DNA of 64,000 nucleotides from Kitasatospora terrestris (lineage in GTDB: Bacteria; Actinomycetota; Actinomycetes; Streptomycetales; Streptomycetaceae), in the NCBI RefSeq assembly GCF_039542905.1, contig NZ_BAABIS010000001.1, positions 186,001 to 250,000 of the forward strand, written 5' to 3'. The position numbers and the translations under genes were made by a program. The notes under the pieces are model-generated. The model was not told where the DNA came from and did not search any database. It saw only the letters and a program-made list of their open reading frames with translations. Below, one piece after another: positions 29,801-52,625 of the stretch. Every line of letters begins with the position of its first letter. Positions within the stretch are counted from its first letter, which is position 1.

Positions 29801-30625
29801 TCAACGGTTCGGGGTGCGCTCGTAGGGGGTCTTCTCGCCGGCCTCGATGGGGATCGGGAGGCGGTTCTCGGCGGGCGGGAGGGGGCAGGTGGCGAGGTCG
29901 GTGTAGGCGCAGGGGAGGTTGGTGGCGCGGTTGAAGTCGACCAGGACCCGGCCTTCGGCGTCGGGGGCGGGGATGGAGAGGGCGCGGTTGGCCGCGTACG
30001 TGGTGACGCCCGAGGTGGCGTCGGTGAACAGGGCCTGGAGGGTGCCGGGGCCGCTGCCGTTGAAGACGGTCAGCCGGTGGGTGCGGCCGTCCAGGTCGAA
30101 CTCGACCTCGCCCGGGGCGTCGTAGACGTGCTGCAGTCCTTCGACCGCCGCGCCGACGGTGGTGGCGCGGGGCGCGTCGAAGGGCAGGTAGCGGCCGGTC
30201 AGGGACCAGCGCGGGTCGGGCGCGTACGCCGGGGTGTGGGTGAAGCGGACGCGCAGTTCGTTGTCGGGGTGGCGCGGGCGCAGGATGTCGTGGCCGCCGC
30301 GCTTGGCGATCTCGACGAGGGAGCCGTCGCCGACCGCGGCGTAGAGGCTGGCCCGTTCGTCGAGGACGCCGAACAGGTGGTGCCCGTGCACGGCGGTTCC
30401 GTCGACGACCAGCTCCTCGCCCTCGTCGAGGTGGACGGCGATGCCCTGCTCGGTGCTGGACCAGGCGCCGGGCGCGTCGGGGTAGCGGGTGGGTTCGCCC
30501 GTCAGCCAGTGCAGCCCGGTGACGGCGAGGAAGCCGTGCGGGTCGGCGAGGGCCCGCTCGTGGGCGGCGTGCCACTGCTCCCACTGCCGGGTGAACTCCT
30601 CGGTGGAGGTGTCCTGGACGGTCAC
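29801..30625 (-). CDS. DUF1684 domain protein
   Basis: 274 residues, soluble. 'FLAVTGLHWLTGEPTRYPDAPGAW' in the first third and 'LVDFNRATNLPCAYTDLATCPLPPAENRLPI' near the end are the DUF1684 landmarks; the Cys residues and acidic groups of the second block could form a metal site. Last gene of the minus-strand monooxygenase operon, 40 bp after the LLM gene. Its role in sulfur use is inferred only from position. GAGGAG precedes GTG 30625. Confidence 0.88.
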   Translation of the reverse strand: MTVQDTSTEEFTRQWEQWHAAHERALADPHGFLAVTGLHWLTGEPTRYPDAPGAWSSTEQGIAVHLDEGEELVVDGTAVHGHHLFGVLDERASLYAAVGDGSLVEIAKRGGHDILRPRHPDNELRVRFTHTPAYAPDPRWSLTGRYLPFDAPRATTVGAAVEGLQHVYDAPGEVEFDLDGRTHRLTVFNGSGPGTLQALFTDATSGVTTYAANRALSIPAPDAEGRVLVDFNRATNLPCAYTDLATCPLPPAENRLPIPIEAGEKTPYERTPNR

Positions 30626-30665
30626 GAGTACTCCTCAGGGGTCGGTGCGGGTCGGCCGGGCGGGG

Positions 30666-31799
30666 TCATCGGCGGTTCCACTCCTCGGCGAGCAGCTCGT
30701 AGGAGCGGACCCGGTCGCGGTGCCGGTGGGTGATGGTGGTGATGATCAGTTCGTCCGCGCCGGTGGCCTCGCGCAGGGTCTCCAGCCGGTCGGCGACCTG
30801 CTGGGGCGAGCCGACGAACTGGGTCTCGGTGCGGTCGGCCACCAGCGCCCGGTCGGCCTCGGTCCAGGAGTGGACGCGGGCTTCGTCGGGGGTGGGGAAC
30901 GGGATCGCGCCGTCGCCGCTGCGGATGCTGCGCACCCACAGGCCGTAGCCGGTGGCGAGTTCGCGGGCGGTGGCCTCGTCCTCGGCGACCACGACGTCGG
31001 CGGAGACGCTGACGTGGGGCCGTTCCAGTTCGGCGGAGGGTTTGAAGGCCGCGCGGTAGGCCTCGGCGGCTTCCAGCACGGTGGCGGGGCTGACGTGGTA
31101 GTTCGCGGCGAAGCGCAGGCCGTGGGCGCCGGCGACCTCGGCGCTGATGCCGGCGCTGCTGCCGAGGATCCAGACCTGGAGGTCGGCGCCTTCGCCGGGG
31201 ACGACGTGCGCCTGCACGCCGTCCGCGGTGGTGTAGGTGCCGGCCAGCAGGTGGAGGATGTCGGCGATCTGCTCGTCGTACGGCTGCGACTTCGCCTCCG
31301 GCAGCAGGAGCAGTTGCTGGTGGAGGGCGAAGCGCGGGTGGCGCAGCAGGTGTTCGTAGGAGAAGCGGGCCGGTATCCGCAGGCCGCCCGGGGCGGGGTC
31401 GGTCCCGGGCGGCTCCTCGGTGGCCTCGGTGGCCGGCGGGGCGTCGGCCCGGGTGGAGCGGCCGCCGGAGCGGCCGAGGCCCAGGTCGAAGCGGCCGGGG
31501 TGGAGCGCGTCGAGCAGGCCGAACTCCTCGACGGTGGCGAGGGCGGTGCGGTGGCCGAGTTGGACGGCGCCGGCGCCGAGCCGGATGGTCGAGGTGGCGG
31601 CCGCGGTGAGGGCGAGGACGACGGCGGGCGAGGTGCCGGCGACGCCGGGGTTGAGGTGGTGCTCGGCGAACCAGTAGCGCGCGTAGCCGAGTTCCTCGGC
31701 GCGCCGGGCGAGGTCGATGCTGTTGCGCAGGGCCTCGGCGGCGGTCGATCCGGAGGAGACGGGTACCAGGTCGAGTACGGTCAGCGGGGTGTTGCTCAT
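30666..31799 (-). CDS. LLM-class flavin-dependent oxidoreductase
   Basis: 377 residues of the bacterial-luciferase TIM barrel: 'RRAEELGYARYWFAEHHLNPGVA' and 'LGAGAVQLGHRTALATVEEFGLLDALHPGRFDLGLGRSG' are family blocks for flavin binding. The enzymes use reduced FMN or F420. Third gene of the operon, 41 bp after the NtaA-type gene. The substrate is unknown; the setting points to an organosulfur compound. Confidence 0.9.
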   Translation of the reverse strand: MSNTPLTVLDLVPVSSGSTAAEALRNSIDLARRAEELGYARYWFAEHHLNPGVAGTSPAVVLALTAAATSTIRLGAGAVQLGHRTALATVEEFGLLDALHPGRFDLGLGRSGGRSTRADAPPATEATEEPPGTDPAPGGLRIPARFSYEHLLRHPRFALHQQLLLLPEAKSQPYDEQIADILHLLAGTYTTADGVQAHVVPGEGADLQVWILGSSAGISAEVAGAHGLRFAANYHVSPATVLEAAEAYRAAFKPSAELERPHVSVSADVVVAEDEATARELATGYGLWVRSIRSGDGAIPFPTPDEARVHSWTEADRALVADRTETQFVGSPQQVADRLETLREATGADELIITTITHRHRDRVRSYELLAEEWNRR

Positions 31800-31840
31800 G
31801 GCGGTGAATCCTTCGTCGGTGCGCCGGGCCGGTGCTTCGG

Positions 31841-33205
31841 CTAGCTGGGGGACGGGACCGGGCGGGGCGCGGCGAGGCCGAGGTGGTCGCGCAGGGTGGT
31901 GCCCTCGTACTCGGTGCGGTGGACGCCGCGTTCCTGGAGCAGCGGGACGACGGTGTCGGCGAACTCGTCCAGTCCGCCCGGGGTCAGGTGCGGGACGAGG
32001 ATGAAGCCGTCGGCGGCGTCGGTCTGGACGGACTCGTTGAGCTGTTCGGCGACCCGTGCCGGGGTGCCGATGAAGGACTGGCGGCCCGTCACTTCGATGA
32101 TCAGTTCGCGGATCGAGAGCTTCTTGGCCTCGGCGAGGGCGCGCCATTCGGCGGCGGTGGCGAGCGGGTCCCGGTGGTGGCGGACGGAGGCGCGGCCGCG
32201 GGCGACGGTGTGTTCGCCGAGGAGCGGGTCCACCTCGGGCAGCGGACCGTCGGGGTCGTACGCGCTGAGGTCGCGGTTCCACAGCTGTTCGAGGAGCCGG
32301 ATCGCGGTCTGTCCGCTGACCTGCTGGCGGCGGATCAGGTGGGCTTTCTCGTGCGCGTCGGCCTCGGTGTCGCCGAGCACGAAGGTGACGCCGGGCAGGA
32401 TCTTCAGCTCGTCGCGGGTGCGGCCGTAGCGGGCCAGGCGGTCCTTGACGTCGGTGTAGAAGGCCCGGCCGGCCTCCGGGGTGCCGTGCCGGCTGAAGAT
32501 GGCGTCGGCGGCGGAGGCGGCGAACTCGCGTCCCGCGTCGGAGTCGCCGGCCTGGAAGATCACCGGCCGGCCCTGCGGGCTGCGCGGGACGTTGAAGTGC
32601 CCGGAGATGTCGAACTGGCCGTCGTGGTGGTCGAACCGGCCGGGACCGGGCTCGCGCAGGAAGGCCCCGCTCTCCCGGTCGGCGAGGATCTCGTCGCCGC
32701 GCCAGGAGTCGAAGAGCCCCCGCGCGGCGCTGAGGAACTGCCGGGCGCGCTCGTAGCGGTCCTCCTGCGCGAGGAAGCCGCCGCGGCGGAAGTTCTCACC
32801 GGTGAACTCGTCCCAGGAGGTGACCACGTTCCAGGCCGCGCGGCCGTCGGAGAGGTGGTCGAGCGAGGCGAACTGCCGTGCCACCTCGTAGGGTTCGTTG
32901 AAGGTGGAGTTGACGGTCCCGGCGAGGCCGAGCCGCTCGGTGACGGCGGCGAGCGCGGCGAGGACGGTGAAGGTGTCGGGTCGCCCCACCACGTCCAGGT
33001 CGTAGATCTCGCCGTTCTGCTCGCGCAGCCGCAGGCCCTCGGCGAGGAAGAGGAAGTCGAACTTGGCGCGCTCGGCGGTCCGGGCGAGGTGGACGAAGGA
33101 GCTGAAGTCGATCTGGCTGCCGGCCTGCGGGTCGCTCCAGACCGTGGTGTTGTTCACGCCGGGGAAGTGGGCGGCGAGGTGGATCTGCTTGACGGGCTTG
33201 CTCAT
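31841..33205 (-). CDS. NtaA/SnaA/DmoA-type FMN monooxygenase
   Basis: 454 residues. N-terminal 'HFPGVNNTTVWSDPQAG' and 'ARTAERAKFDFLFLAEGL', then 'TVNSTFNEPYEVARQFASLDHLSDGRAAWNVVTS', match the NtaA/DmoA branch that cleaves C-N or C-S bonds with FMNH2. The end, 'HRTEYEGTTLRDHLGL', recurs in two other proteins of this window. It needs a flavin reductase; one is encoded at 45719. Second gene of the minus-strand operon. Confidence 0.92.
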   Translation of the reverse strand: MSKPVKQIHLAAHFPGVNNTTVWSDPQAGSQIDFSSFVHLARTAERAKFDFLFLAEGLRLREQNGEIYDLDVVGRPDTFTVLAALAAVTERLGLAGTVNSTFNEPYEVARQFASLDHLSDGRAAWNVVTSWDEFTGENFRRGGFLAQEDRYERARQFLSAARGLFDSWRGDEILADRESGAFLREPGPGRFDHHDGQFDISGHFNVPRSPQGRPVIFQAGDSDAGREFAASAADAIFSRHGTPEAGRAFYTDVKDRLARYGRTRDELKILPGVTFVLGDTEADAHEKAHLIRRQQVSGQTAIRLLEQLWNRDLSAYDPDGPLPEVDPLLGEHTVARGRASVRHHRDPLATAAEWRALAEAKKLSIRELIIEVTGRQSFIGTPARVAEQLNESVQTDAADGFILVPHLTPGGLDEFADTVVPLLQERGVHRTEYEGTTLRDHLGLAAPRPVPSPS

Positions 33206-33226: not shown

Positions 33227-34498
33227 TCAGGCGTGGACGGTGCGGGTGGCGTCGGTCGCGCGGGTGGCGTCGGTCGCGTCGGCGGCGTCGGTCGCGTGGG
33301 TGGCGTAGCGGTTGGCGGGGCGCGGCAGGCCGAGGTGTCCGCGCAGGGTGGTCGCCCCGTAGGCGGTGCGGAAGGCGCCGCGGCGCTGGAGTTCGGGCAC
33401 CAGGTGGCGGGTGATCTGCTCCAGGTCGTGGGGCAGGACGGCGGGGCGCAGCCGGAAGCCGGTGAGTCCGGCGTGCTGCCACTCCTGGAGCAGGTCGGCG
33501 AGTTCGGCGGCCGTGCCGGTGAAGATGCGGGCGTCGCTGGTGAGGGCGGCGCCGGCCTGCCGGTCGAGGCGGGCAAGGCGGTCGGCGGCGGCGCCGGGGG
33601 TCTCGTCGAGGAGGACCACCAGGTCGCCGAAGACGTGGACGGTCTGCTCCGCGCGGCCGGCGTCGGCCTGGGCCCGGCGGATCTCGGCGACGACGGTGCG
33701 GGCGTCGGCGGCGTCGTACGGGGTGACGAAGCCGAGGTCGGCCGAGCGGCCGACCAGCCGGTAGGGCTCGCCGCGGTGCGCGAGGGCGGTGACGAGGGGT
33801 TGGCCCTGCGGCGGGCGCGGGGTGATGGACGGCCCGCGCACGCTGAAACGGCGGCCCTCGAAGTCGATGTAGTGCAGCTTCTCCCGGTCGACGAAGCGGC
33901 CGGTGGCGGTGTCGCGGATCTCCGCGTCGTCCTCCCAGCTGTCCCACAGCCGGCGGACGACCTCGACGTAGTCCTCCGCCTCGCCGAAGAGGTCGCGCAG
34001 GATCTCCAGTCCGGCGGGCGTGTCGAGGTCCTCGAAGCTCAGCTCGGGCGCAGCCCGGCGGCCGATGTGCGCGGCCTCGTCGACCCGGCCGGACACCTTC
34101 ACCCGCAGGCCGGCCCGGCCGGAGCTGACGAAGTCGAGGGTGGCGACCGCCTTGGAGAGGTGGAACGGCTCGGTGTGGGTGACGATCGCCGTCGGGACCA
34201 GTCCGATGTGCCGGGTCAGCGGCGCGATCCGGGCGGCGACGAGGACGGCGTCGAGGCGGCCGCGCACCTGGTCGGTCCGCTCGTCCGGGGCGAAGGGGTG
34301 GGTGGACTGGAGGCTGAGCGAGTCCTCCAGGGTGACCAGGTCCAGCAGGCCGCGCTCGGCCTCGGCGACGAGGTCGGCCCAGTAGCGGGCGGTGAACAGC
34401 TCGCCTGGTCGGGCGTCGGGCTCGCGCCAGGCGGCGGGATGCCAGCCGGCACCGTCCAGGGCGACGGCGAGGTGCAGCGGGGCGGGGTTTTCGGGCAT
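33227..34498 (-). CDS. NtaA-like FMN monooxygenase, repeat tail
   Basis: 423 residues. Luciferase-like barrel ('ARYWADLVAEAERGLLDLVTLEDSLS', 'ATLDFVSSGRAGLRVKVSGR') with the C-terminal 'FRTAYGATTLRGHLGLPRP' block. First gene of the four-gene operon; AGGAAG lies ahead of ATG 34498. The last about 25 residues are a low-complexity Ala-Thr-Asp-Arg tail made by a DNA repeat (33242-33308), absent in its paralogs. 160 bp upstream on the same strand a leader peptide is encoded. Confidence 0.9.
   Translation of the reverse strand: MPENPAPLHLAVALDGAGWHPAAWREPDARPGELFTARYWADLVAEAERGLLDLVTLEDSLSLQSTHPFAPDERTDQVRGRLDAVLVAARIAPLTRHIGLVPTAIVTHTEPFHLSKAVATLDFVSSGRAGLRVKVSGRVDEAAHIGRRAAPELSFEDLDTPAGLEILRDLFGEAEDYVEVVRRLWDSWEDDAEIRDTATGRFVDREKLHYIDFEGRRFSVRGPSITPRPPQGQPLVTALAHRGEPYRLVGRSADLGFVTPYDAADARTVVAEIRRAQADAGRAEQTVHVFGDLVVLLDETPGAAADRLARLDRQAGAALTSDARIFTGTAAELADLLQEWQHAGLTGFRLRPAVLPHDLEQITRHLVPELQRRGAFRTAYGATTLRGHLGLPRPANRYATHATDAADATDATRATDATRTVHA
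33242..33308. repeat. Imperfect tandem repeat in coding tail
   Basis: About 15-bp units of GGTGGCGTCGGTCGC type repeated with small changes, encoding alternating ATDATR-like residues at the end of the LLM protein. Length variation between strains would alter the tail. Confidence 0.7.
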
Positions 34499-34655: not shown

Positions 34656-34775
34656 TCAGGCGCCGGCGCGCGCCTCGGCGGCGTGCGGGGACGCCGGACA
34701 CAGCGCGGTGGTCACCCGCTGCAGGTCGATGTGGAGCCGGGCACACGTCGTGGTGACGCGGCAGCTGGCCTTCAC
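34656..34775 (-). CDS. Putative Cys leader peptide of LLM operon
   Basis: 39 codons from GTG 34775 (start uncertain). Contains RLHIDLQRVTTALCP, matching the 'DL-RV--ALC' core of small streptomycete leader peptides found before sulfur-assimilation genes. The conserved Cys codon is TGT, uncommon in this genome, and two more Cys codons occur earlier. It precedes the LLM operon by 157 bp; a 7-bp hairpin (34584-34602) lies between. Ribosome behaviour at Cys codons could sense cysteine supply. Confidence 0.65.
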   Translation of the reverse strand: MKASCRVTTTCARLHIDLQRVTTALCPASPHAAEARAGA

Positions 34776-35170
34776 GGTGGCGACCGCAGGACGCCGCTGG
34801 ATCCGCCGCACTGCCGTCACCTCCGTTCCGCCCGGCACCCACCGGATCGAGCTCGCGCTTGCGGGTGCCGTCGTCGGCCCCGCCGGGTCATCACCTGGAG
34901 CACCCCGCCGCGGAGGAGGGTTGCCGTGCAGCCAGCCAGGGCTTGTCGCTGCGACTCGTGACCTTGCTGCACCGTAACCCGGCGGCGGCGTCCCGCACAA
35001 TCCCGTTCAAGGGCCAACGACCACGCGCGACTTGGGGCGCAACACGGCCGTCACGTTCGCCGTCCCACGCTGTGGCGGGTCGTTGACATCCGACAGTGAA
35101 CCCTTCTAGTTTTGCCGACCATCGGCAGGCGCGACGCCCTTCGGGGCGCGACTGAGCAGAGGTGACGGCG
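34776..35170. other. Divergent regulatory region of the sulfur cluster
   Basis: 395 bp between two divergently oriented leader peptides. The right part has a consensus promoter (35083-35112). The left part should carry the minus-strand promoter, but no convincing -35/-10 pair was identified. No other gene seen. Confidence 0.6.
35083..35112 (+). promoter_or_regulatory. Sigma-70 (HrdB-type) promoter
   Basis: TTGACA at 35083-35088, 18-bp spacer, TAGTTT at 35107-35112. The -35 is a perfect consensus. It lies about 60 bp before the plus-strand leader peptide and would drive the amino-acid ABC transporter. Confidence 0.7.
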
Positions 35171-35281: not shown

Positions 35282-35314
35282 CCCCCTCCTCGGCCCCCGG
35301 CCGACAGGTGTGCG

Positions 35315-35453: not shown

Positions 35454-36443
35454 ATGACCGACTCTCTCGCCCCTGCCGTGCCCTCGGGCACGGCCTCTCC
35501 CCCGGACCTGACGGCACGACAGGCGGACGCGGGCCCCGCGCAGCGGGTCGTCCCGCTGCGGCATCCGGGCCGCTGGATCGTCAGCGCGGTGGCGCTGGTG
35601 GTCGTCGCCCAGATCGTCCACGGCCTGGCGACCAACCCCTTCTACCAGTGGGACCGCTTCCGGTACTGGTTCGCCCGGCCGGTCATCACCGACGGGCTCG
35701 CCGTCACCCTGGAGGTCACCGCGTACAGCGCGGTCCTCGGCCTGGTCGGCGGCGTCGTGCTGGCGTTGGCCCGGCTCTCCCGCAGCCCGGTGCTGCGGGC
35801 GGTCAGCTGGGTCTACGTCTGGCTGTTCCGCTCGGTGCCGCTGATCGTGGTGCTGCTCTTCCTCTACAACTTCAGCGCGTTGTACCGGACGCTCAGCCTC
35901 GGGGTGCCGTTCGGGCCGGCCTTCTTCCGCTTCGACGAGTCGCGGCTGGCCACCGACCTGGTGATCGCGGTCGTCGGGCTGAGCCTCAACGAGGCCGCGT
36001 ACGCCGCGGAGGTGGTGCGGGCCGGCATCCTCTCCGTCGACCAGGGGCAGCACGAGGCGGCCGCCGCGCTCGGTCTGCCGAGGCGGTACCAGTTCGCCCG
36101 GATCGTCTTCCCGCAGGCGCTGCGCGCCATCGTCCCCTCGTACGTCAACCAGCTGATCGGCCTGGTCAAGGCCACCTCGCTGGTCTTCTACGTCTCACTG
36201 CTGGACCTGTTCGGCTCGGTGCAGAGCATGGGCGCCACCTACCCGGGCGACATCGTGCCGCTGCTGCTGGTCGCCACCGCCTGGTACGTGGTCCTCACCA
36301 GCGTCGTCTCGGTGGTCCAGTTCTACGTCGAGCGCCACTACTCGCGCGGCGCGCTGCGCGCGCTGCCGCCGACCCCCTGGCAGCGTCTGCGCGCCGCCCT
36401 GCCCGCCCTGATCGCCCGCGCCCGCAGGGAGACCGCGTCATGA
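35454..36443 (+). CDS. Amino-acid ABC transporter permease
   Basis: 329 residues. The family block '[25 protein letters not shown]' and the '[43 protein letters not shown]' EAA loop place it with the HisM/GlnP/TcyB type. About five to six membrane helices. An extra N-terminal region of about 35 residues precedes helix one. Coupled to the ATPase by an ATGA overlap. The cystine-type assignment is inferred from the cluster. Confidence 0.92.
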
Positions 36444-37246
36444 CCGTGCTGAACACCGAGGTGCCACCCGCCGCGGAGGACCCGGCGCCCGTCGGGGTCG
36501 AGGTGCACGGGGTGCACAAGTGGTACGGCGCGCAGCACGTCCTCGACGGCGTCGACCTGACGCTCGCTCCGGGCGAGGTGACGGTCGTCATCGGGCCGTC
36601 CGGCTCGGGCAAGTCGACGCTGCTGCGGGTGATCAACCACTTGGAGCAGCCGCAGCGCGGCCACGTCAGCCTGGGCGGCGAGCCGATCGGCGTGCGCCGG
36701 CACCGGGGGCGGCTGAAGGAGCTGAGCGAGCGTCGGATCCTGGCGCAGCGCAGCCGGATCGGCTTCGTCTTCCAGAACTTCAACCTCTTCCCGCACCTGA
36801 CGGTGCTGGACAACGTGGCCGCCGCGCCCGTCGCCACCGGCCGGCTGCGCAGGCCCGAGGCGCAGCGGCTGGCGCTGGACCTGCTGGAGCGGGTGGGGCT
36901 GGCGGAGAAGGCGTCCGCCTATCCGCGGCAGCTGTCCGGCGGGCAGCAGCAGCGGGTGGCGATCGCCCGGGCGCTGGCGCTGCGTCCGGGCGTGATCCTC
37001 TTCGACGAGCCGACCTCGGCGCTCGACCCGGAGCTGGTGGGCGAGGTCCTCGCCGTCATCAAGGACCTGGCCGCGGGCGGTACGACGCTGGTCGTCGTCA
37101 CCCACGAGATCGGCTTCGCCCGCGAGGTCGCGGACCGCGTCGTCTTCATGGACGGCGGCCGGATCCTCGAACAGGGGCCTCCGGGCGAGGTGTTGGACCG
37201 TCCGCGGCATCCGCGCACCCGCGAGTTCCTGAGCAGGGTGCTGTGA
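36440..37246 (+). CDS. Amino-acid ABC transporter ATPase
   Basis: 268 residues. Walker [11 protein letters not shown] loop '[14 protein letters not shown]', signature [15 protein letters not shown], Walker [15 protein letters not shown], His switch VVTHE. The pattern matches polar amino-acid importers (GlnQ, TcyC). Cytosolic, coupled to the permease (ATGA). A Ser-rich insert is absent; the extra '[21 protein letters not shown]' segment lies before the Q loop. Confidence 0.95.
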
Positions 37247-37305: not shown

Positions 37306-38328
37306 ATGACCGATCTCCGCAGCAGCAGACTCCTCCGCATCCTGATCGCGAGCACCGCCGCGGCCGCGCTCACGGCGGGCCTCGCCGCGTGCGGGAGCGA
37401 CGCCCCGTCCTCCGCGTCCGCGGACAAGGCGGCGGCGGGCACCGTGACCGTCGCGGACCTGTCCAACGGCGCGGGGACCCGGACCGAGATCAAGGTGGCC
37501 GAGGTCGCCGCCCTGCACGCCGAGCTGCCCGCCTCGGTCGCCAAGAGCGGGCAGCTGGTGATCGGCGTGGGTGCGCTGCCCGCCGGGTCCGCGCCGCTGG
37601 CGTTCGTCGGCAGCGACCAGAAGACCCTCACCGGGGCCGAGCCCGATCTCGGCCGACTGGTCGCGGCCGTCCTCGGACTGAAGCCGGTGGTGCAGAACTC
37701 CACCTGGGAGAACCTCTTCGTCGGCATCGACAGCGGCCGGACCGACGTCGGCTTCTCCAACATCACCGACACCGAGGAGCGCAAGAAGAAGTACGAGTTC
37801 GCCTCCTACCGCGAGGACAACCTGGCCTTCGAGGTGCTGAAGAGCAGCACCTGGAACTTCAACGACGACTACACCACCCTGGCCGACAAGACCGTGGCGG
37901 TCGGCGCCGGCACCAATCAGGAGAAGATCCTGCTGGAGTGGCAGGCGCAGCTGAAGGCGGCGGGCAAGCAGCTCACCGTCAAGTACTTCCCCGACAACAA
38001 CGCCACCCACCTGGCGCTGCTCGGCGGCAAGATCGACGCCTACTTCGGCCCCAACCCGTCCATCGCCTACCAGATCACGCAGGACGCCAAGACCCCGAAC
38101 CCGACCCGCAGCGCGGGCACCTACTCGGGGGCCGGCGCCTCGCTGCAGGGGCTGATCGCGGCGACCGCGAAGAAGGACAGCGGTCTGGCGAAGCCGGTCG
38201 CCGACGCCATCAACCACCTGATCCAGAACGGGCAGTACGCGCAGTGGCTGGCGGCCTGGAACCTGTCCGACGAGGCGGTCACCGCCGCGCAGGTCAACCC
38301 GCCGGGCCTGCCGCTGACCAACTCCTGA
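37306..38328 (+). CDS. Amino-acid ABC transporter substrate-binding lipoprotein
   Basis: 340 residues. Signal with lipobox LAAC-GS near residue 25, so it is tethered to the membrane. Periplasmic-binding type 3 fold with 'VVQNSTWENLFVGIDSGRTDVGFSNITDTEERKKKYEFA' typical for polar amino acids, then 'ATHLALLGGKIDAYFGPNP'. The binding pocket may suit cystine or S-substituted cysteine; this is inference from the neighbourhood. 59 bp after the ATPase; hairpin terminator downstream. Confidence 0.9.
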   Translation: MTDLRSSRLLRILIASTAAAALTAGLAACGSDAPSSASADKAAAGTVTVADLSNGAGTRTEIKVAEVAALHAELPASVAKSGQLVIGVGALPAGSAPLAFVGSDQKTLTGAEPDLGRLVAAVLGLKPVVQNSTWENLFVGIDSGRTDVGFSNITDTEERKKKYEFASYREDNLAFEVLKSSTWNFNDDYTTLADKTVAVGAGTNQEKILLEWQAQLKAAGKQLTVKYFPDNNATHLALLGGKIDAYFGPNPSIAYQITQDAKTPNPTRSAGTYSGAGASLQGLIAATAKKDSGLAKPVADAINHLIQNGQYAQWLAAWNLSDEAVTAAQVNPPGLPLTNS

Positions 38329-41907: not shown

Positions 41908-42975
41908 GTGTCCCCGTACCAGGGCCTCCCCACCCCGAACCGAAGAATGTTCCTCCGGACCCTGCTCGGCACCGGCGCCGCACTCGGCCTCAGCGCCTGC
42001 GCCAGTGCCGCCGCCGGCGGCCCCGCGCTGTCGACCGGCGCCGCGCTGCCGACCGAGGTGCCGAGCGGCACCGGCCTGCGCATCGCCTCCTCCCTCGGTG
42101 CCCAGCAGCTCCAGCTCCAGCTCTCCGGCCTGATCGGGAAGATCCCCTTCGCGGTCTCCTCCTGGCCGAACATCGGAGCCGGCCCGGACGTCATCAACGC
42201 CTTCCGCGCCAACTCCCTGGACCTGGCCAACAACGCCGGCATCCCGCCCATCCAGGCCCACTTCCAGGGGTACGACGCGCGCATCGTCGCCATCAACCTC
42301 ACCCGCAAGCCGTCCTACCTGTTCGCGACCAGGCCGCACAGCGACATCCAGTCGGTGGCGCAGTTCGCGGGCAAGAAGCTGGCGTTCTCCCAGGGCCAGG
42401 CGCAGGGCGTGGTGCTGCTGCGGGCGCTGCACCAGGCCGGCCTGAAGGACAAGGACGTCCAGCTCGTCCCGCTGACCAGCAACCAGTTCCTGACGGCGCT
42501 GGCGGCCGGCCAGGTGGACGTCGCCCCGCTCGGCATCTCGCAGGCCCCTGCCTACCTCAACCAGTACGGCGCCGACGGCGCGCACACCGTCACCACCGAC
42601 GTCGTGGACCTGCTCAACCTGCTGTGGGCCCCGGCCGGCGTGCTGGCCGACCCCGCCCGGGCCGCGGCGATCGCCGCCTTCGTCCCGATCTGGGCCCAGG
42701 GGCTGGTGTGGGTCTACGAGAACCCGGCCGTCTGGGAGCAGGAGTACTACGTCAAGAGCCAGAAGATCAGCGCCGAGCAGGCCCACCAGGTCACCCAGCT
42801 GAGCAACAAGCCGCTGCTGCCGCCGAGCTGGGACGAGGCGATCGCCTGGGAGCAGCAGACGGTCGACCTGCTGGCCGAGGGCGGCTTCGTGAAGTCCTTC
42901 CGGGCCGAGACCCTGTTCGACCGCCGTTTCGAGCACCTCGCGGCGGCTGCCGTCCCCGCCGAGTACCGGAGTTGA
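41908..42975 (+). CDS. SsuA/NrtA-type ABC substrate-binding lipoprotein
   Basis: 355 residues. RR-containing signal (NRRMFLRTLLG) with lipobox LSAC near residue 30. PBP-II fold: 'GPDVINAFRANSLDLANNAGIPPIQAH' and 'LKDKDVQLVPLTSNQFLTALAAGQVDVAPLG' match sulfonate- and thiamine-precursor-binding proteins. AAAGGAAG precedes the GTG. It should feed the permease and ATPase of this operon. Confidence 0.9.
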   Translation: MSPYQGLPTPNRRMFLRTLLGTGAALGLSACASAAAGGPALSTGAALPTEVPSGTGLRIASSLGAQQLQLQLSGLIGKIPFAVSSWPNIGAGPDVINAFRANSLDLANNAGIPPIQAHFQGYDARIVAINLTRKPSYLFATRPHSDIQSVAQFAGKKLAFSQGQAQGVVLLRALHQAGLKDKDVQLVPLTSNQFLTALAAGQVDVAPLGISQAPAYLNQYGADGAHTVTTDVVDLLNLLWAPAGVLADPARAAAIAAFVPIWAQGLVWVYENPAVWEQEYYVKSQKISAEQAHQVTQLSNKPLLPPSWDEAIAWEQQTVDLLAEGGFVKSFRAETLFDRRFEHLAAAAVPAEYRS

Positions 42976-42977: not shown

Positions 42978-43877
42978 ATGGCCGACCACACATCGACCGC
43001 CGTGGTGACCGCCCCCGGGCGGCCCGTCACCCCGGCCGTGCCTCCACCGGTACCCGCACCCGCGTCCGCCGCGCGGGCGGCCGGCGCCGGCCGCCCCCGC
43101 ACGCGGCGGCTAGGCCCCGGTCCGCGACGGCCCTGGGCCCGGCTGCTGGGCCCGCTGGTCCTGCTCGCCGTCTGGGCCGGGGCGAGCGCTGCCGGGCTGC
43201 TGGACCCGCGGATCCTGCCCGCCCCCTGGTCGGTGCTGGACACCGGGGCGCAGCTGTGGGCCGAGGGCACGCTCCGCGCCGATCTGGGCACCTCCCTGTG
43301 GCGCGCCGCGCGGGGCTTCGCGATCGGCCTGACGGCCGGCGTGGTGCTGGCGCTGACCGCCGGGCTGAGCCGGATCGGCGAGGCGCTGATCGACGGCACG
43401 GTGCAGGTCAACCGCGCGGTGCCGACGCTGGGTCTGATCCCGCTGTTCATCCTGTGGCTGGGCATCGGGGAGACGTTCAAGGTCGTCATCATCGCGATCG
43501 TCGTCTACATCCCGGTCTACCTGAACCTGCACGCCGCGCTGGCCGGGATCGACTCGCGCTACGTCGAGCTCGCCGAGGTGCTGCGGCTCAGCCGCCGGCG
43601 GTTCGTCCGCCAGGTGGTCGTCCCGGGGGCGCTGCCCGGCTTCTTCGTCGGGCTGCGCCTGGCCGTCACCGGCTCCTGGCTCTCACTGGTGGTCCTGGAG
43701 CAGATCAACGCCACCAACGGCCTCGGCTACATGATGTTCCAGGCGCAGAACTACGGCCAGACCCAGGTCATCGTCCTCGGACTGCTCATCTACGGGGTCT
43801 TCGGGTTCACCTCCGACTCCGCCGTCCGTCTCCTGGAGAGGAGGGTCCTGGCATGGCGCCGATCGCTGGGGAACTGA
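42978..43877 (+). CDS. SsuC-type ABC permease
   Basis: 299 residues. Long Pro/Ala-rich N-terminus (about 55 residues), then six membrane helices. EAA motif '[40 protein letters not shown]'. Typical of the sulfonate/nitrate/taurine permease group. Three bases after the binding-protein stop; overlaps the ATPase start by 25 bp. Confidence 0.92.
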
Positions 43878-44647
43878 CCCGTCCCGCCGTCCGACTCGCC
43901 GGCCTGACCCGTTCGTTCGGGCCGCGCACCGTGCTCGACAACATCGACCTGGAGATCCCGCCCGGGCAGTTCGTCGCCCTGCTGGGCCACTCCGGCTCCG
44001 GCAAGAGCACCCTGCTGCGGGCCGTCGCCGGCCTCGACCGCGACACCGCGGGCAGCGGGGAACTCACCACCCCCGAGCGGGTGTCGGTGGTCTTCCAGGA
44101 CTCCCGGCTGCTGCCCTGGCGCCGGGTGCTGGACAACGTCCTGCTCGGCCTCGGCAAGGGGGACGGCGACGGCCGCGCCGCAGTGGAGCGCGGCCGGGCG
44201 GCGCTCGCCGAGGTCGGCCTGGCCGGCCGGGAGCGGGCCTGGCCCGGCCAGCTCTCCGGCGGCGAGCAGCAGCGGGCCGCGCTGGCCCGCTCGCTGGTCC
44301 GCGACCCGGAGCTGCTGCTCGCCGACGAGCCGTTCGGCGCCCTGGACGCGCTCACCCGGATCCGCATGCACACCCTGCTGCGCAAGCTGTGGCAGCGCCA
44401 CCACCCGTCCGTGCTGCTGGTCACCCACGACGTGGACGAGGCGGCGGCGCTGGCCGACCGGGTGCTGGTCCTCGACCGGGGCCGGATCTCCGTCGACCTG
44501 GCCATCGACCTGCCCCACCCGCGCACCTACCGGGATCCGCTGCTGGGCGAGTACCGCGAGCGGCTGCTGGCCGCGCTGGGAGTCGGGCCCGACGGCGAGC
44601 CGGACGGCGCCGCGGGCGCCCCGGTGGCGACCGGGGCGGGGGGCTGA
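43853..44647 (+). CDS. SsuB-type ABC ATPase
   Basis: 264 residues. Walker [11 protein letters not shown] loop '[18 protein letters not shown]', signature [15 protein letters not shown], Walker [13 protein letters not shown], His switch VTHDVDEAA. The 'SRLLPWR' and 'DEPFGALD' forms are diagnostic for nitrate/sulfonate/taurine importers. GGAGAGGAGG sits inside the permease gene end. Confidence 0.95.
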
Positions 44648-44648: not shown

Positions 44649-45722
44649 ATGGGCGAACACCTCTGGTACATCCCCAACACGGTCGAGCCGGGCCACCGCG
44701 GCGACGACGCGTCCGACGGCTGGGGCAGCCTCGACCACGCGACCGACCTCGCCCTCGCGGTCGAGCGGCACGGCTGGGCCGGGGCGCTGCTCGGCACCGG
44801 CTGGGGCCGGCCGGACACCTTCACCGTCGCGGCCTCGCTCGCCGCCCGCACCACCACGTTCAAACCGCTGATCGCGGTGCGGCCCGGCTACTGGCACCCC
44901 GCCAACTTCGCCTCGGCCGCGGCCACCCTGGACCGGCTGAGCCGGGGCCGGGTCCTGGTCAACGTGGTCAGCGGCCTGGACGACCCCGCGGCCTACGGTG
45001 ACGGCGAGTCGGACCCCTCCCGCCGCTACGGGCGCACGCTGGAGTTCCTCCGGCTGGTCCGCCGGCTGTGGGGCGAGGAGACGGTCACCTTCCACGGCGA
45101 GCACTACCGGGTGGAGAACTCCTCGCTGCGGCCCCGGCCCTGGGGCGCCGAGGACGGCCGCCACCCGCGGCTGTACTTCGGCGGCGCGAGCGGGGCCGCC
45201 GAGGAGGTCGCCGCCCGGGAGGCCGACGTCCAGCTGTTCTGGGGCGAGCCGCTGGACGGCGTCGCCGAACGCGTCGACCGGCTCCGGGCGCTCTCCGCGC
45301 GACTCGAACGCCGGCACCGGCCGCTGGAGTTCGGGCTGCGGGTGACCACCGTCGTCCGGGACACCACCGAGGAGGCGTGGCGGGCCGCGGAGGACAAGGT
45401 CGCCCGGATGGCCGCGCGGGGAGCCCACGACCCGGAGGCGTTCCAGCGCCGGGCCGCCGTGGGCCAGCGCCGTCTGCTCGACCTCCAGCAGCGCGGCGAG
45501 GTGCTGGACGGCTGCCTGTACACCACGCCCGGCCGCTACGGCGGCGGGGGCGCCGGGACGACCTGGCTGGTCGGCTCCGCGCAGGACGTGGCCGAGGCGC
45601 TGCGGAGGTACCGGGCTCTCGGGGTGACGCACTTCGTGCTCTCCGACACCCCCTACAAGGAGGAGATCGCCCGGATCGGCGACCGGCTCCTGCCCCTGCT
45701 GCGGTCGGAGGTCCCCGCATGA
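44649..45722 (+). CDS. SsuD-like alkanesulfonate monooxygenase
   Basis: 357 residues. LLM barrel with 'WGRPDTFTVAASLAARTTTFKPLIAVRPGYWHPANFASAAATLDRLSRGRVLVNVVSG', the clear SsuD form; a Cys in the usual active site region is not seen. Cleaves the C-S bond of sulfonates using FMNH2 and O2, giving sulfite and aldehyde. Next gene is a flavin reductase overlapping by four bases. Confidence 0.92.
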   Translation: MGEHLWYIPNTVEPGHRGDDASDGWGSLDHATDLALAVERHGWAGALLGTGWGRPDTFTVAASLAARTTTFKPLIAVRPGYWHPANFASAAATLDRLSRGRVLVNVVSGLDDPAAYGDGESDPSRRYGRTLEFLRLVRRLWGEETVTFHGEHYRVENSSLRPRPWGAEDGRHPRLYFGGASGAAEEVAAREADVQLFWGEPLDGVAERVDRLRALSARLERRHRPLEFGLRVTTVVRDTTEEAWRAAEDKVARMAARGAHDPEAFQRRAAVGQRRLLDLQQRGEVLDGCLYTTPGRYGGGGAGTTWLVGSAQDVAEALRRYRALGVTHFVLSDTPYKEEIARIGDRLLPLLRSEVPA

Positions 45723-46225
45723 CCGCCGTCGCCACCGACAGCAGGGCCCTGCGCGCCGTGTTCGGTGCCTTCCCCACCGGCGTCACGGCGGTCGCCGCCC
45801 TGGTCGGCGGACGGCCGCTCGGCCTGGCGGCCAGCTCGTTCACCTCGGTGTCGCTCGCCCCCGCGCTGGTCTCCCTGTGCATGGCGACGACTTCCGGGAC
45901 GTGGTCCGAGCTGCGCCGCGCCGAGCGCCTGGGCATCAGCGTGCTCGGCGCCGGGCACGGATCGCTGTGCCGGCAGCTCGCCGGCCCTGCCGACGGGCGG
46001 TTCACGGGCGTCGACTGGCGGGCGACGGCGGACGGCGCCGTGCTGCTGGACGGCGCGAGCGCCTGGTTCGAGTGCGCCGTCGACCGCGAGATCCGCGCCG
46101 GCGACCACGACATCGTCCTGCTCCGCGTGCTCGACCTGCACGCCGAGCCCGCCGTGGACCCGCTGGTCTTCCACGCGAGCACCTTCCGCTCGCTCGCCCC
46201 CGGCGCCCCGCGCCCCACCCCCTGA
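45719..46225 (+). CDS. Flavin reductase
   Basis: 168 residues. Flavin-binding split barrel: 'FGAFPTGVTAVAALVGGRPLGLAASSFTSVSLAPALVSLCMATTSGTW' is characteristic, with 'DHDIVLLRVLDLHAE' near the end. Supplies reduced FMN to the monooxygenases on both sides. Start overlaps the SsuD-like stop (ATGA), a strong sign of paired synthesis. Confidence 0.92.
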   Translation: MTAVATDSRALRAVFGAFPTGVTAVAALVGGRPLGLAASSFTSVSLAPALVSLCMATTSGTWSELRRAERLGISVLGAGHGSLCRQLAGPADGRFTGVDWRATADGAVLLDGASAWFECAVDREIRAGDHDIVLLRVLDLHAEPAVDPLVFHASTFRSLAPGAPRPTP

Positions 46226-46243: not shown

Positions 46244-47587
46244 ATGGGCAAGCAGCTCCACCTCAACCTGTTCATCCACGACACCGGCCACCACGAGGCG
46301 TCCTGGCGGCTGCCGGAGTCCGACCCCGCCGCCGACCTCGACCTGGCCTTCCACCAGCGGCTCACCCGGATCGCCGAGGACGCCAAGTTCGACTCGGTGT
46401 TCCTCGCCGACAGCCCGGCCCTGTGGGGCGACCCCAGCCGCCGGCCGTCCGGCAAGCTGGAGCCGACCGTCCTGCTGGCCGCCCTCGCCGCCGGCACCAC
46501 CCGGATCGGGCTCATCGCCACCGCCTCCACCAGCTACAACGAGCCCTACAACCTGGCCCGCCGGTTCGCCTCGCTCGACCACCTGTCCAACGGCCGCGCC
46601 GGCTGGAACATCGTCACCACCGCCGGTGACGCCGCCGCCCGCAACTTCGGCCTGGAGGGCCAGCCGCTGCACCGCACCCGCTACGAGCGGGCCGCGGAGT
46701 TCCTGGAGGTGTCCACCAAGCTGTGGGACAGCTGGGCCGACGAGGCGCTGGTCGCGGACAAGGACGCCGGCGTCCACGCCGACCCCGACCGGGTGCGCCC
46801 GGCCGGCCACCGCGGCCGCTTCTTCCAGGTCGAGGGCGCGCTGAACGTACGCCGCTCGCCGCAGGGCCACCCGCTGCTCGTGCAGGCCGGCTCCTCGGAG
46901 GACGGCAAGGAGTTCGCCGCCCGCTGGGCCGAGGCGGTGTTCACCGCGCAGCCGACCCTCGCGGAGGGCCAGGCGTTCTACGCCGACGTCAAGCGCCGCG
47001 CGGCCGCCGCCGGCCGCGACCCCGACCACGTCAAGATCCTCCCCGGCATCGTCCCCGTGATCGGCGCCACCGAGGCCGAGGCCCGCGAGCTGGAGGCCGA
47101 ACTCGACCGGCTGATCAAGCCCGAGTACGCGCGCGAGCAGCTGGCGACCGTCCTCAAGGTGGACCCCGAGCGGCTGCGCTTCGACGAGCAGCTGCCCGAC
47201 GACCTGCCCACCGAGGACGAGGTGGAGGGCGCCAAGAGCCGCTACACGCTGATCGTGGAGCTCGCCCGCCGCGAGCGCCTGACGGTGCGCGAGCTGATCG
47301 GCCGGCTCGGCGGCGGCCGCGGCCACCGCACCTTCGCCGGCACGCCCGTCCAGGTCGCCGACACCATCCAGCACTGGTTCGAGAACAGCGCCGCCGACGG
47401 CTTCAACGTGATGCCCGCCGTCCTGCCGTCCGGGCTGGAGGTCTTCGTGGCCGAGGTCCTGCCGATCCTGCGCGAGCGCGGCCTGTTCCGCACCGAGTAC
47501 ACGGGCACGACACTGCGCGACCACTACGGCCTGCCCCGGCCCGCCGACCGGTTCGCCCTCGCCGCAGCCGTCGGCGGCGCCGCGTGA
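46244..47587 (+). CDS. NtaA/DmoA-type FMN monooxygenase
   Basis: 447 residues. 'RIAEDAKFDSVFLADSPALWG' and 'IATASTSYNEPYNLARRFASLDHLSNGRAGWNIVTTAGD' with a C-terminal 'FRTEYTGTTLRDHYGLPRP', so it is a paralog of the gene at 31841. Catalyses C-S or C-N cleavage of a small organic compound; dimethyl sulfide and nitrilotriacetate enzymes are known relatives. GAAGGA before the ATG. Overlaps the exporter start by four bases. Confidence 0.92.
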   Translation: MGKQLHLNLFIHDTGHHEASWRLPESDPAADLDLAFHQRLTRIAEDAKFDSVFLADSPALWGDPSRRPSGKLEPTVLLAALAAGTTRIGLIATASTSYNEPYNLARRFASLDHLSNGRAGWNIVTTAGDAAARNFGLEGQPLHRTRYERAAEFLEVSTKLWDSWADEALVADKDAGVHADPDRVRPAGHRGRFFQVEGALNVRRSPQGHPLLVQAGSSEDGKEFAARWAEAVFTAQPTLAEGQAFYADVKRRAAAAGRDPDHVKILPGIVPVIGATEAEARELEAELDRLIKPEYAREQLATVLKVDPERLRFDEQLPDDLPTEDEVEGAKSRYTLIVELARRERLTVRELIGRLGGGRGHRTFAGTPVQVADTIQHWFENSAADGFNVMPAVLPSGLEVFVAEVLPILRERGLFRTEYTGTTLRDHYGLPRPADRFALAAAVGGAA

Positions 47588-51591: not shown

Positions 51592-51601
51592 AAGGTCCCG
51601 C

Positions 51602-52625
51602 ATGACCATCCCCTACCGGCCGTTCGGCCGCACCGGCGTCCAGGTGAGCGCGCTCGCGCTCGGCGCGATGAACTTCGGCGGCCTCGGCAACCCCAGCCAC
51701 GAGGACGGCGTGCGCATCGTCCACCGCGCCCTGGACGCCGGAATCAACATCGTCGACACCGCCGACGTCTACTCCCGGGGCGAGTCCGAGGTGATCGTCG
51801 GCAAGGCCCTCGCCGGCCGGCGCGACGACGTCTTCCTGGCCACCAAGTTCCACGGCCGGATGGGCGAGGACGTCAACCGGTCCGGCAACTCGCGCCGCTG
51901 GATCCACCGCGCCGTCGAGGCCAGCCTGGAACGCCTCGGCACTGACCACATCGACCTCTACCAGGTGCACCGCCCCGAGGAGGACACCGACTTCGACGAG
52001 ACCCTCGGCGCCCTGACCGACCTCGTCCGCCAGGGCAAGATCCGGTACATCGGCACCTCCACCTTCCCGGCGTCCCGGATCGTCGAGGGGCAGTGGACCG
52101 CCGAGCGGCGCGGCCGCGAACGCGTCGTGGCCGAGCAGCCCCCGTACTCGGTCCTCGCCCGCGGCGTGGAAGCCGAAGTCCTCCCGGTGGCGCAGCGGTA
52201 CGGGCTCGCCGTCATCCCGTGGAGCCCGCTCGCCGGCGGCTGGCTGACCGGCCGCTACCGCGCGGGCGGGGCCCAGCCGCACTCCAGCCGGGCCGACCGC
52301 CAACCCGGGCGCTTCGACCTGGGCAGCGCCGAGAACGCCGACAAGCTGGCCGCCGTCGAAGCCCTCGCCGTCCTCGCCGACGAGGCCGGCCTCACCCTCG
52401 TCGAGCTCGCCCTCGGCTTCGTCCTCGCCCACCCCGCCGTCACCGCGCCGATCATCGGCCCGCGCACCCTCGCCCAACTGGAGGACCAACTCGGCGCCGC
52501 CGCCACCCCCCCTGCCCCCGGACGTCCTCGACGCCATCGACAAGATCGTCCCCCCGGGCACCACCCTCTCCTCCCGCGACACCGGCTACCTCCCACCCGC
52601 CCTCCGCCGCCGCCCCGCCCCCTGA
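51602..52625 (+). CDS. Aldo/keto reductase, C-terminal frameshift
   Basis: About 340 residues if corrected. TIM-barrel AKR with 'NIVDTADVYSRGESEVIVGKAL' (Asp and Tyr), 'VFLATKFHG' (Lys) and 'YQVHRPEED' (His), the full tetrad, plus 'IIGPRTLAQLEDQLGAA' for NADPH. After ATP a run of seven C at 52506-52512 has one C too many: in the +1 frame the normal end PPDVLDAIDKIVPPG runs to a stop at 52625, just before a terminator. The uncorrected frame runs on to 52789 through that terminator and the next gene. Confidence 0.8.

What the first reader, a model, noticed from the sequence alone, without database searches (positions are those of the whole stretch)
29801..52625. A compact organosulfur-scavenging island with six monooxygenase-type enzymes
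Five LLM flavin monooxygenases (30666, 31841, 33227, 44649, 46244) and one TauD-like dioxygenase sit with two different ABC importers, one dedicated flavin reductase, a GNAT, a ROK regulator, a fused exporter and leader peptides, all in two divergent transcription blocks. Each family is individually known for sulfur release; the combination with the exporter and aldo/keto reductase seems to be a complete uptake, cleavage and by-product disposal pathway. Substrate chemistry is inferred.
Basis: partly seen in the sequence, partly recalled or inferred. Interest (0 to 1): 0.75.

Follow-up and report, generated by a model that had tools for sequence, protein, structure and literature searches.

The report
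Two-signal switch for sulfur scavenging
A cluster of bacterial genes, likely used to recover sulfur from modified cysteines and sulfonates, carries an RNA element of the SAM-sensing kind directly in front of a tiny leader gene that likely senses cysteine, so two sulfur signals would be read one after the other before the enzymes are made.

Summary
The genes described are there: five luciferase-like flavin monooxygenases (LLM), a TauD-like dioxygenase, two ABC importers, flavin reductase, GNAT, ROK, fused exporter and aldo/keto reductase. The one-pathway picture is only partly right: relatives show two modules, (A) importer-GNAT facing an LLM operon and (B) ROK-TauD-Ssu-LLM; exporter and reductase do not follow in a relative with the same run. 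Of 110 SAM-IV elements in 61 genomes of the family, 30 (in 20 genomes) are followed by such a leader, always 57-135 nt away; 28 of the 30 precede importer or LLM genes of the module A kind. The leader's closing cysteine codon is UGU in 30 of 30, although UGU is rare in genes here (2 of 42). The window has a second leader on the importer side, where relatives also have a SAM-IV aptamer that is missing here, and a third leader of another kind before tauD, again with UGU. Module A resembles Bacillus S-alkylcysteine (Cmo/Scm) salvage operons but lacks a deacetylase gene. Substrate, ligand binding and switch polarity are untested.

The parts
34850..34963 (-). SAM-IV riboswitch aptamer
   Evidence: RF00634, 99.4 bits, full length 1-116; own model R1 118.8 bits, a model partly built from it
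34656..34811 (-). leader ORF 1 (ends ...LHIDLQRVTTALC + PASPHAAEARAGA), start GTG 38 nt after the aptamer, closing motif Cys codon TGT
   Evidence: NF042934 'putative leader peptide' 26.5 bits, cut-off 27, 27.2 in the genome search
33227..34498 (-). LLM_3, flavin monooxygenase of the NtaA/DmoA kind
   Evidence: PF00296; TIGR03860 268 bits, below cut-off 279.7
31841..33205 (-). LLM_2, flavin monooxygenase of the NtaA/DmoA/CmoJ kind
   Evidence: TIGR03860 417 bits; best solved structures B. subtilis YtnJ/MoxC, 290 bits; in 80 of 80 loci, which were chosen by it
30666..31799 (-). MsnO8-type LLM
   Evidence: TIGR03558 304 bits over cut-off 167
29801..30625 (-). DUF1684 protein
   Evidence: PF07920 155 bits; neighbour in 15 of 80 loci
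35106..35139 (+). place where relatives carry a second SAM-IV aptamer; flanks kept, aptamer body absent here
   Evidence: alignment with L133, L144, L155; R1 finds no aptamer here, best other score 8.7 bits
35171..35281 (+). leader ORF 2 (MHAAPGTAVGRHRGRAAAFLDRAVDLLRVSSALCRG), Cys codon TGT
   Evidence: NF042934 22.2 bits, below cut-off 27
35454..36443 (+). importer permease (polar amino-acid class)
   Evidence: PF00528, TIGR01726; start
36440..37246 (+). importer ATPase, best model TcyN
   Evidence: NF008428 314 bits, cut-off 406
37306..38328 (+). importer solute-binding protein, family 3
   Evidence: PF00497
38415..39119 (+). GNAT acetyltransferase (FR47 type)
   Evidence: PF08445; relatives of it are preceded by SAM-IV in L135, L159, L164
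39302..40486 (+). ROK-family regulator
   Evidence: PF00480 plus winged-helix hits
40564..40668 (+). leader ORF 3, another kind (MDAQHEATIREAAQRLPVNAFRAHHFAGLRCRLG), Cys codon TGT
   Evidence: no NCBIfam match; found in 6 of 61 genomes, TGT in 6 of 6
40922..41872 (+). TauD-like 2-oxoglutarate dioxygenase
   Evidence: PF02668 202 bits; nearest structure 5hsx
41908..42975 (+). SsuA-like binding protein
   Evidence: TIGR01728 91.5 bits, cut-off 163.5
42978..43877 (+). SsuC-like permease
   Evidence: NF008470 188 bits, cut-off 347; start
43853..44647 (+). SsuB-like ATPase
   Evidence: NF008420 239 bits, cut-off 395; start
44649..45722 (+). SsuD-like LLM
   Evidence: NF001939 246 bits, cut-off 510; best structure 1nqk SsuD
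45719..46225 (+). flavin reductase (HsaB/FerA-like)
   Evidence: PF01613; NF045630 112 bits, cut-off 230
46244..47587 (+). LLM_5, NtaA/DmoA type
   Evidence: TIGR03860 560 bits
47731..51591 (+). fusion of two half ABC exporters; probably not part of the conserved unit
   Evidence: PF00664 x2, PF00005 x2; absent after LLM_5 in L206
51602..52789 (+). aldo/keto reductase; probably not part of the conserved unit
   Evidence: PF00248; absent after LLM_5 in L206

Best explanation
The heart of the stretch is a conserved pair of facing transcription units, flavin monooxygenases plus DUF1684 on one strand and an amino-acid importer plus GNAT on the other, in which the monooxygenase side begins with a SAM-IV riboswitch followed at once by a leader ORF that ends near a UGU cysteine codon, and which is predicted to import S-substituted cysteines and cleave them oxidatively when SAM and cysteine both run low. 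Shown: gene content, the riboswitch match, the leader ORFs, the narrow riboswitch-leader spacing, the UGU codon, and the recurrence of these parts in relatives, including one locus (L209) with SAM-IV, leader, importer, GNAT and four LLMs on one strand. Inferred regulation: the riboswitch acts on the ribosome-binding site of the leader, which sits about where some SAM-IV elements without a leader have that of their gene. High SAM would then stop leader translation; with low SAM the leader is translated, and a ribosome slowed at UGU by scarce Cys-tRNA keeps the downstream message open, while fast passage closes it, probably through Rho or masking of the gene's start since no intrinsic terminator was found. 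Both shortages would be needed, a serial AND gate. Inferred chemistry: N-acetylation by the GNAT, S-oxidation and C-S cleavage by the LLM set, as in the Bacillus Cmo/Scm pathways, with deacetylation by an M20 enzyme coded elsewhere. Module B (ROK-TauD-Ssu-LLM_5), with a third leader, would release sulfite from sulfonates and is a second, separable sulfur source.
For: SAM-IV at 99.4 bits. In 110 SAM-IV matches from 61 genomes (59 with a match) the leader motif follows in 30 (20 genomes), always 57-135 nt from the aptamer, against 187 of 4000 random 700-nt windows of the same loci. Leader start, chosen by script, 16-48 nt after the aptamer in 30 of 30; in 29 of the 80 without a leader a long-ORF start with a Shine-Dalgarno-like site was found within 150 nt, median 52. 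First gene called after the 30 tandems: importer permease 15, LLM_3 12, LLM_X 1, DUF1684 1, unassigned 1 (in one of the 12, L187, one search shows a permease ahead of LLM_3); after the other 80 mostly a cysteine desulfurase, 57. Upstream of LLM_3 in 73 loci: strong SAM-IV in 12, all 12 with the leader; leader in 26. Closing Cys codon TGT in 30 of 30 tandems, 41 of 42 leaders in the 80 loci, 21 of 24 in other genomes with 1 TGC and 2 without a readable cysteine. One-strand locus L209 (its SAM-IV and leader as L160). GNAT directly behind SAM-IV in 3 loci. LLM_2 nearest to YtnJ/CmoJ; pathway chemistry from PMC10863075 (part 1 of 3 read) and PMC12757645 (passages).
Against: No ligand binding, transcript or growth data. 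Folding of 25 of the 30 tandem leaders (five left out by me as having uncertain starts) did not settle polarity: with P1 forced the leader's ribosome-binding site became more open by 0.2 or more in 11 of 25, including this window, and less open by 0.1 or more in 4 of 25, so SAM may open the leader instead. No supported structure was found between leader and gene. In this strain only one of the two sides keeps the riboswitch. In the sample the tandem is in 20 of 61 family genomes and, of 9 in this genus, only in this one. No M20 deacetylase gene lies in the window; the nearest in this genome is about 66 kb from the island. LLM_2 scores only slightly better to YtnJ (290 bits) than to NtaA (269) or DszA (268), so the substrate is open. 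46 of 73 loci with LLM_3 have neither element. Leaders use more T-ending codons in general (GAT 14 of 30 Asp against 11 of 601 in genes), which weakens the UGU argument.
Confidence: 0.5

Rival explanations
1. Same parts, opposite polarity: SAM binding frees the leader's ribosome-binding site, translated leader shuts the genes off only when cysteine is also plentiful, so either shortage turns the genes on (an OR gate).
For: In the window's own sequence the leader site GGAGG pairs with the aptamer core in the unconstrained fold (unpaired 0.00) and is open when P1 is forced (0.82); 11 of 25 tandems tested shift this way.
Against: 4 of 25 shift the other way and 10 of 25 move little; the forced fold lies 1-14 kcal/mol above the free one and ignores pseudoknot and ligand. 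SAM riboswitches are as a rule OFF switches (recalled).
Confidence: 0.25
2. The riboswitch and the leader act independently on the downstream genes rather than in series; their neighbourhood reflects two separately recruited OFF controls.
For: 12 of 73 LLM_3 loci have the leader without SAM-IV, and the importer side here has a leader alone.
Against: The leader start sits 16-48 nt after the aptamer in 30 of 30; upstream of LLM_3 no strong SAM-IV occurs without a leader (0 of 12; in the family census one SAM-IV before an LLM_3-like gene, L182, has none).
Confidence: 0.2
3. Module A acts on another organosulfur class, such as sulfides, sulfones or aromatic thioethers, not on S-substituted cysteines.
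For: TIGR03860 also holds NtaA, DmoA and DszA types (recalled); LLM_2 scores to DszA and NtaA are close to those to YtnJ; no deacetylase gene in the window.
Against: The importer belongs to the polar amino-acid class with TcyN as best ATPase model, and importer, GNAT and LLMs stand on one strand in L209, the same trio as in Bacillus S-modified-cysteine clusters (PMC9706529 and PMC12757645, passages).
Confidence: 0.3
4. One reading: both blocks plus exporter and aldo/keto reductase form one uptake, cleavage and disposal route.
For: All lie within 23 kb; the exporter starts about 140 nt after LLM_5.
Against: Exporter and reductase are missing after LLM_5 in L206 and, save 4 remote reductase hits, from the LLM_2 loci as shown.
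Confidence: 0.08

Closest known systems
B. subtilis S-alkylcysteine salvage (CmoO/CmoJ, ytn/ytm genes) and scm (yxe) 2-succinocysteine operon
   Same: Acetyltransferase, ABC importer and NtaA/DmoA-type monooxygenase together (importer named for scm/yxe in PMC9706529, passages); LLM_2 is closest to YtnJ/CmoJ among solved structures (that YtnJ is CmoJ is recalled); an MsnO8-type LLM may play the CmoO part (inference).
   Different: No deacetylase gene; LLM_2 comes with a second NtaA-like partner LLM_3 and DUF1684; SAM-IV and a leader ORF in front. That the Bacillus operon is under a protein regulator is recalled.
Actinobacterial Cys leader peptides (NF042934; Ms4527A/Ms5788A; Canestrari et al. 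2020, not held, known from a reference list)
   Same: Leader motif R.HVDL.RV..LC before genes that look sulfur-related.
   Different: Placed behind a SAM-IV aptamer in 30 of 110 cases; no run of cysteines in the tandem ones, the motif ends in one UGU.
M. tuberculosis B12 riboswitches with translated uORFs (Kipkorir et al. 2024, PMC11260477, passages read)
   Same: A riboswitch and a short translated ORF in one leader.
   Different: In the passages read the uORFs lie in or beside the B12 element and are not reported to sense a second metabolite.
SAM-IV riboswitch before cysteine desulfurase (S. lividans SLIV_26975, PMC8079986, passages)
   Same: Same aptamer family; 57 of 110 SAM-IV matches in the family sample are followed by a relative of this genome's desulfurase-like gene.
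   Different: No leader motif found between riboswitch and gene.
Ssu/TauD sulfonate systems
   Same: SsuA, C, B, D-like and TauD-like genes in one run.
   Different: Each best Ssu or Tau model scores below its NCBIfam cut-off; the reductase is HsaB/FerA-like, not SsuE; ROK and a third leader type precede it.

Membership tests
SAM-IV riboswitch (RF00634) | covariance-model match over the gathering score, full length | tested here: met
   99.4 bits against 38, positions 1-116
SAM-IV riboswitch (RF00634) | binds SAM and changes expression | not testable with these tools
   needs in-line probing and reporters
Cys leader peptide NF042934 | score over the curated cut-off of 27 bits | tested here: inconclusive
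   leader 1: 26.5 and 27.2 bits; leader 2: 22.2 bits; leader 3: no match
Cys leader peptide NF042934 | cysteine-dependent control of the next gene | not testable with these tools
   no expression data
Cmo/Scm S-modified-cysteine salvage | NtaA/DmoA-type monooxygenase | tested here: met
   LLM_2 TIGR03860 417 bits; YtnJ best structure
Cmo/Scm S-modified-cysteine salvage | acetyltransferase and amino-acid importer in the cluster | tested here: met
   GNAT and polar amino-acid importer present; one strand with the LLMs in L209. Orthology to the Bacillus GNAT was not tested
Cmo/Scm S-modified-cysteine salvage | N-acetylcysteine deacetylase in the cluster | tested here: not met
   15 M20 matches in this genome, 13 over the cut-off, none inside the window
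SsuEADCB alkanesulfonate system | SsuD over its cut-off and an SsuE reductase | tested here: not met
   SsuD-like 246 bits of 510; reductase of another family
TauD taurine dioxygenase | over equivalog cut-off | tested here: not met
   NF007104 236.5 bits of 313

The most novel reading that the evidence does not exclude
A composite two-metabolite RNA sensor, seen in a third of the sampled Streptomycetaceae and reaching other actinobacterial orders: a SAM-IV riboswitch gates translation of a leader ORF whose single sensing codon is fixed as UGU, so SAM and cysteine are read in series to command an S-substituted-cysteine salvage regulon; the UGU rule extends to other sulfur leaders and to a further, unnamed leader family before tauD-ssu.
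Probability: 0.45. Interest if true: 0.8.

Novelty: new variant of a known kind. Interest (0 to 1): 0.6.

Why it matters
If true, it gives a compact natural logic gate for sulfur status made only of RNA and ribosomes, and it assigns a large group of unassigned actinobacterial flavin monooxygenases, DUF1684 and a GNAT to sulfur recovery. The strain carries both forms, riboswitch plus leader on one side and leader alone on the other, so the two inputs can be separated within one intergenic region. The fixed UGU codon is a simple mutable test of how cysteine is sensed.

Tried and rejected
Intrinsic attenuation: one terminator-like site in 34400-35600, on the + strand, and none on the - strand; alifold of 12 IDL-type and 18 VDL-type leader regions gave no supported structure (gappy alignments). 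Polarity by folding: mixed, not used (25 of 30 tandems, script-chosen starts, some doubtful). A dedicated deacetylase: M20 searched in 8 genomes; in G046 one lies about 4.6 kb from a SAM-IV-LLM_3 locus, in this genome none in the window. Exporter and aldo/keto reductase as pathway parts: dropped. DUF1684: only two sequences of uncharacterised solved proteins matched, so no function taken. UGU as a by-product of loose codon use: not excluded; leaders use more GAT and CAT than genes, but an inner LCR cysteine is TGC in 9 of the 10 leaders that have one, counted by eye. Chance of SAM-IV plus leader: tested with random windows. Papers: among the rows listed (8-20 per search) I saw no paper that joins SAM-IV with a leader peptide in one mRNA or reports UGU in such leaders (searches; open-licence library only; most hits were not opened).
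Full report
What is there. The window lies at G000:C1:186001-250000 of an 8.57-Mb genome. Its genus group g1 also holds G045, whose contig 1 has the same length (8,354,403) as the contig of Kitasatospora sp. DSM 101779, so the window is probably from Kitasatospora; family f1 likewise holds G042, whose contig matches Streptacidiphilus neutrinimicus (117,850 bases), a member of Streptomycetaceae (inference). Minus strand: LLM_3 34498-33227, LLM_2 33205-31841, MsnO8-type LLM 31799-30666, DUF1684 30625-29801. Plus strand: importer 35454-38328, GNAT, ROK, TauD-like, SsuA/C/B-like, SsuD-like LLM, flavin reductase, LLM_5, fused exporter, aldo/keto reductase.

Between the two lies a leader ORF (34811-34656) with the motif LHIDLQRVTTALC; a second leader faces it on the plus strand (35171-35281, AVDLLRVSSALC) before the importer. 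NCBIfam calls this class 'putative leader peptide' (NF042934: 26.5 and 22.2 bits, cut-off 27).

The leader class marks sulfur genes. In this genome NF042934 gave 18 matches at E up to 10, of which I read the best 11; the 7 weaker ones were not read. The genes behind the nine that lie outside this island looked like sulfite reductase, CysO-CysM, a GST-like protein, a rhodanese, a 2-oxoglutarate dioxygenase, an FMN reductase, a sulfatase, cysteine dioxygenase and a LuxR-like regulator (named by me from N-terminal sequence, no family search). The LuxR-like one lies behind another SAM-IV of this genome (C1:7881424-7881536). In 119 genomes of the phylum, this one included, 9 had a match at E up to 0.001; most of the 24 new leaders read there also precede genes that look sulfur-related (by eye).

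SAM-IV and leader form a tandem of narrow spacing. SAM-IV was found in 59 of 61 genomes of the family, 110 matches. All 110 were read with flanks (loci, stretches). A leader motif lies within 700 nt downstream in 30 of 110, in 20 of 61 genomes, always 57-135 nt from the aptamer end; random 700-nt windows of the same loci gave 187 of 4000, a rate that includes the leaders themselves. Of the 9 genomes of this genus only this one has the tandem; the other 8 have one SAM-IV each, without leader. This genome's third SAM-IV (L003) is counted as without leader, since its weak leader does not fit the motif. The leader's start codon, chosen by script as one with a Shine-Dalgarno-like site, lies 16-48 nt after the aptamer in 30 of 30. 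Of the 80 without leader, 29 have a long-ORF start with such a site within 150 nt (median 52), so the leader stands about where the gene stands in such SAM-IV mRNAs (inference). First genes called behind the 30 tandems: importer permease 15, LLM_3 12, LLM_X 1, DUF1684 1, unassigned 1; in L187, counted under LLM_3, a permease match lies ahead of it. Behind the 80 others: cysteine desulfurase 57, unassigned 13, GNAT 3, LuxR-like 2, none called 2, LLM_X 1, SsuD-like 1, LLM_3 1.

Wider spread. Of 365 genome contigs stretches encoding a relative of LLM_2, the best 80 were kept. LLM_3 lies near it in 74, MsnO8-type LLM in 38, a further LLM ('X', absent here) in 31, flavin reductase in 19, DUF1684 in 15, GNAT in 13. 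In 73 loci with at least 300 nt before LLM_3: SAM-IV (R1 score 38 or more) with leader 12, leader only 12, weak SAM-IV with leader 2, weak SAM-IV without leader 1, neither 46 (2 loci dropped as too short; model R1 built from six sequences; search). L009 (Solihabitans) and L074 (titled Frankiales bacterium, a MAG) lie outside Streptomycetaceae and show the tandem; L074 was also confirmed with Rfam. No mycobacterial locus showed the leader motif.

The UGU codon. The closing motif cysteine is TGT in 30 of 30 tandem leaders, while 23 genes of this window have TGC 40, TGT 2. In this genome 10 of the 11 leaders read end so; the eleventh (L086) lacks the cysteine. In the 80 contig loci 41 of 42 distinct leaders have TGT and 1 TGC, against TGC 2058 and TGT 273 in called ORFs. 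In leaders of 8 other genomes: TGT 21, TGC 1, no readable cysteine 2, of 24; an inner LCR cysteine there is TGC in 9 of 10 (counted by eye). Against a special role: GAT and CAT are also commoner in leaders (14 of 30 Asp, 8 of 22 His) than in genes (11 of 601, 9 of 296), and the leaders are related to one another and partly shared between the three counts, so these are not independent.

A third leader. Between ROK and tauD the window has 40564-40668, MDAQHEATIREAAQRLPVNAFRAHHFAGLRCRLG. It is conserved in L005 and L206 and found in 6 of 61 family genomes, this one included, with TGT at the motif cysteine in 6 of 6; ROK is the upstream neighbour in 5 of 6; tauD follows in 3 and an LLM_5-like gene in 3. 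It matches no NCBIfam model.

A lost aptamer. In relatives L133, L144, L155 the importer-side leader is also preceded by SAM-IV. The window keeps both flanks with the aptamer body absent, and R1 finds no aptamer there.

Modules. L206 (G042, the same contig as L006) carries perm1, ATPase, SBP, GNAT, ROK, TauD, SsuA, C, B, D, reductase, LLM_5 in the same order at 75-91% identity; exporter and aldo/keto reductase do not follow within the 6.7 kb read. In L209 importer, GNAT, LLM_3, LLM_2, LLM_X, MsnO8 stand on one strand, which speaks for module A as a functional unit. L207 and L208 have the importer and GNAT but not the sulfonate genes in the 20 kb read.

What it works like. Bacillus breaks S-modified cysteines by acetylation, flavin-dependent cleavage and deacetylation (PMC12757645, passages; PMC9706529, passages); CmoO makes a sulfoxide and CmoJ cleaves it (PMC10863075, part 1 of 3 read). 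Module A has importer, GNAT and the CmoJ-like LLM_2 (YtnJ best solved match), but no deacetylase; this genome's nearest M20 gene is about 66 kb away. That the MsnO8-type LLM stands in for CmoO is inference; TIGR03558 matches also occur in B. subtilis, which is weak support. LLM_2 and LLM_3 might form a pair: PDB 7e36 holds two different LLM chains; this is speculation.

Mechanism and its open point. Serial control is inferred from position. Polarity is not settled: in the window's own RNA the leader's GGAGG is buried in the unconstrained fold and open when P1 is forced; 11 of 25 tandems tested behave so, 4 of 25 the reverse. I commit to SAM as OFF signal because SAM riboswitches usually are (recalled), giving an AND gate, and keep the OR gate as main rival. 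A precedent for riboswitch-uORF interplay exists for B12 in M. tuberculosis (PMC11260477, passages). Cysteine attenuation by leaders with cysteine runs in mycobacteria is known to me from Canestrari et al. 2020, which is not held and was seen only in a reference list; candidate cys leaders with cysteine runs were also predicted in PMC1262725 (passages). Held papers on SAM-IV name a cysteine desulfurase in S. lividans, cg1478 in C. glutamicum and O-acetylhomoserine sulfhydrylase in M. avium (passages), none with a leader in the passages read.

Verdict. Observation confirmed; interpretation partly supported. A new variant of known parts: known riboswitch family, known leader class, known enzyme families, in an arrangement for which I saw no description in the listings searched.

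Noticed in passing
window 35106-35139 (+): Importer-side SAM-IV aptamer present in relatives is missing here while the upstream flank and leader stay: a natural leader-only version facing a riboswitch-plus-leader version.
   Followed up: partly
window 40564-40668 (+): Third leader family (MDAQ...HHFAGL[RG]C), no NCBIfam model matched, UGU in 6 of 6 genomes.
   Followed up: partly
L003 1501-1613, L094 (G000:C1:7881424-7881661): SAM-IV followed by a weak leader before a LuxR-like regulator, in the same genome; G046 has a SAM-IV before a relative of that regulator (L189).
   Followed up: no
L187 (+ strand), L196-L203: SAM-IV-like elements before GST-like ORFs, scores about 60-75 bits; no leader motif found.
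   Followed up: no
L205 (G000:C1:7322000-7340000): Second locus in this genome with importer, SsuD-like LLM, a leader lacking the final cysteine (L086) and a GST-like gene.
   Followed up: no
L135, L159, L164: SAM-IV directly before a relative of the GNAT gene, no leader motif.
   Followed up: no
window 53358-56225 (-): AfsR/SARP-like regulator with TPRs (NF053617 513 bits, cut-off 1430) next to the exporter and reductase.
   Followed up: no
LLM_3/LLM_2 pairs in 74 of 80 loci: Two NtaA-like LLMs nearly always close together; LLM_3 of the window scores below the family cut-off, perhaps a partner subunit.
   Followed up: no
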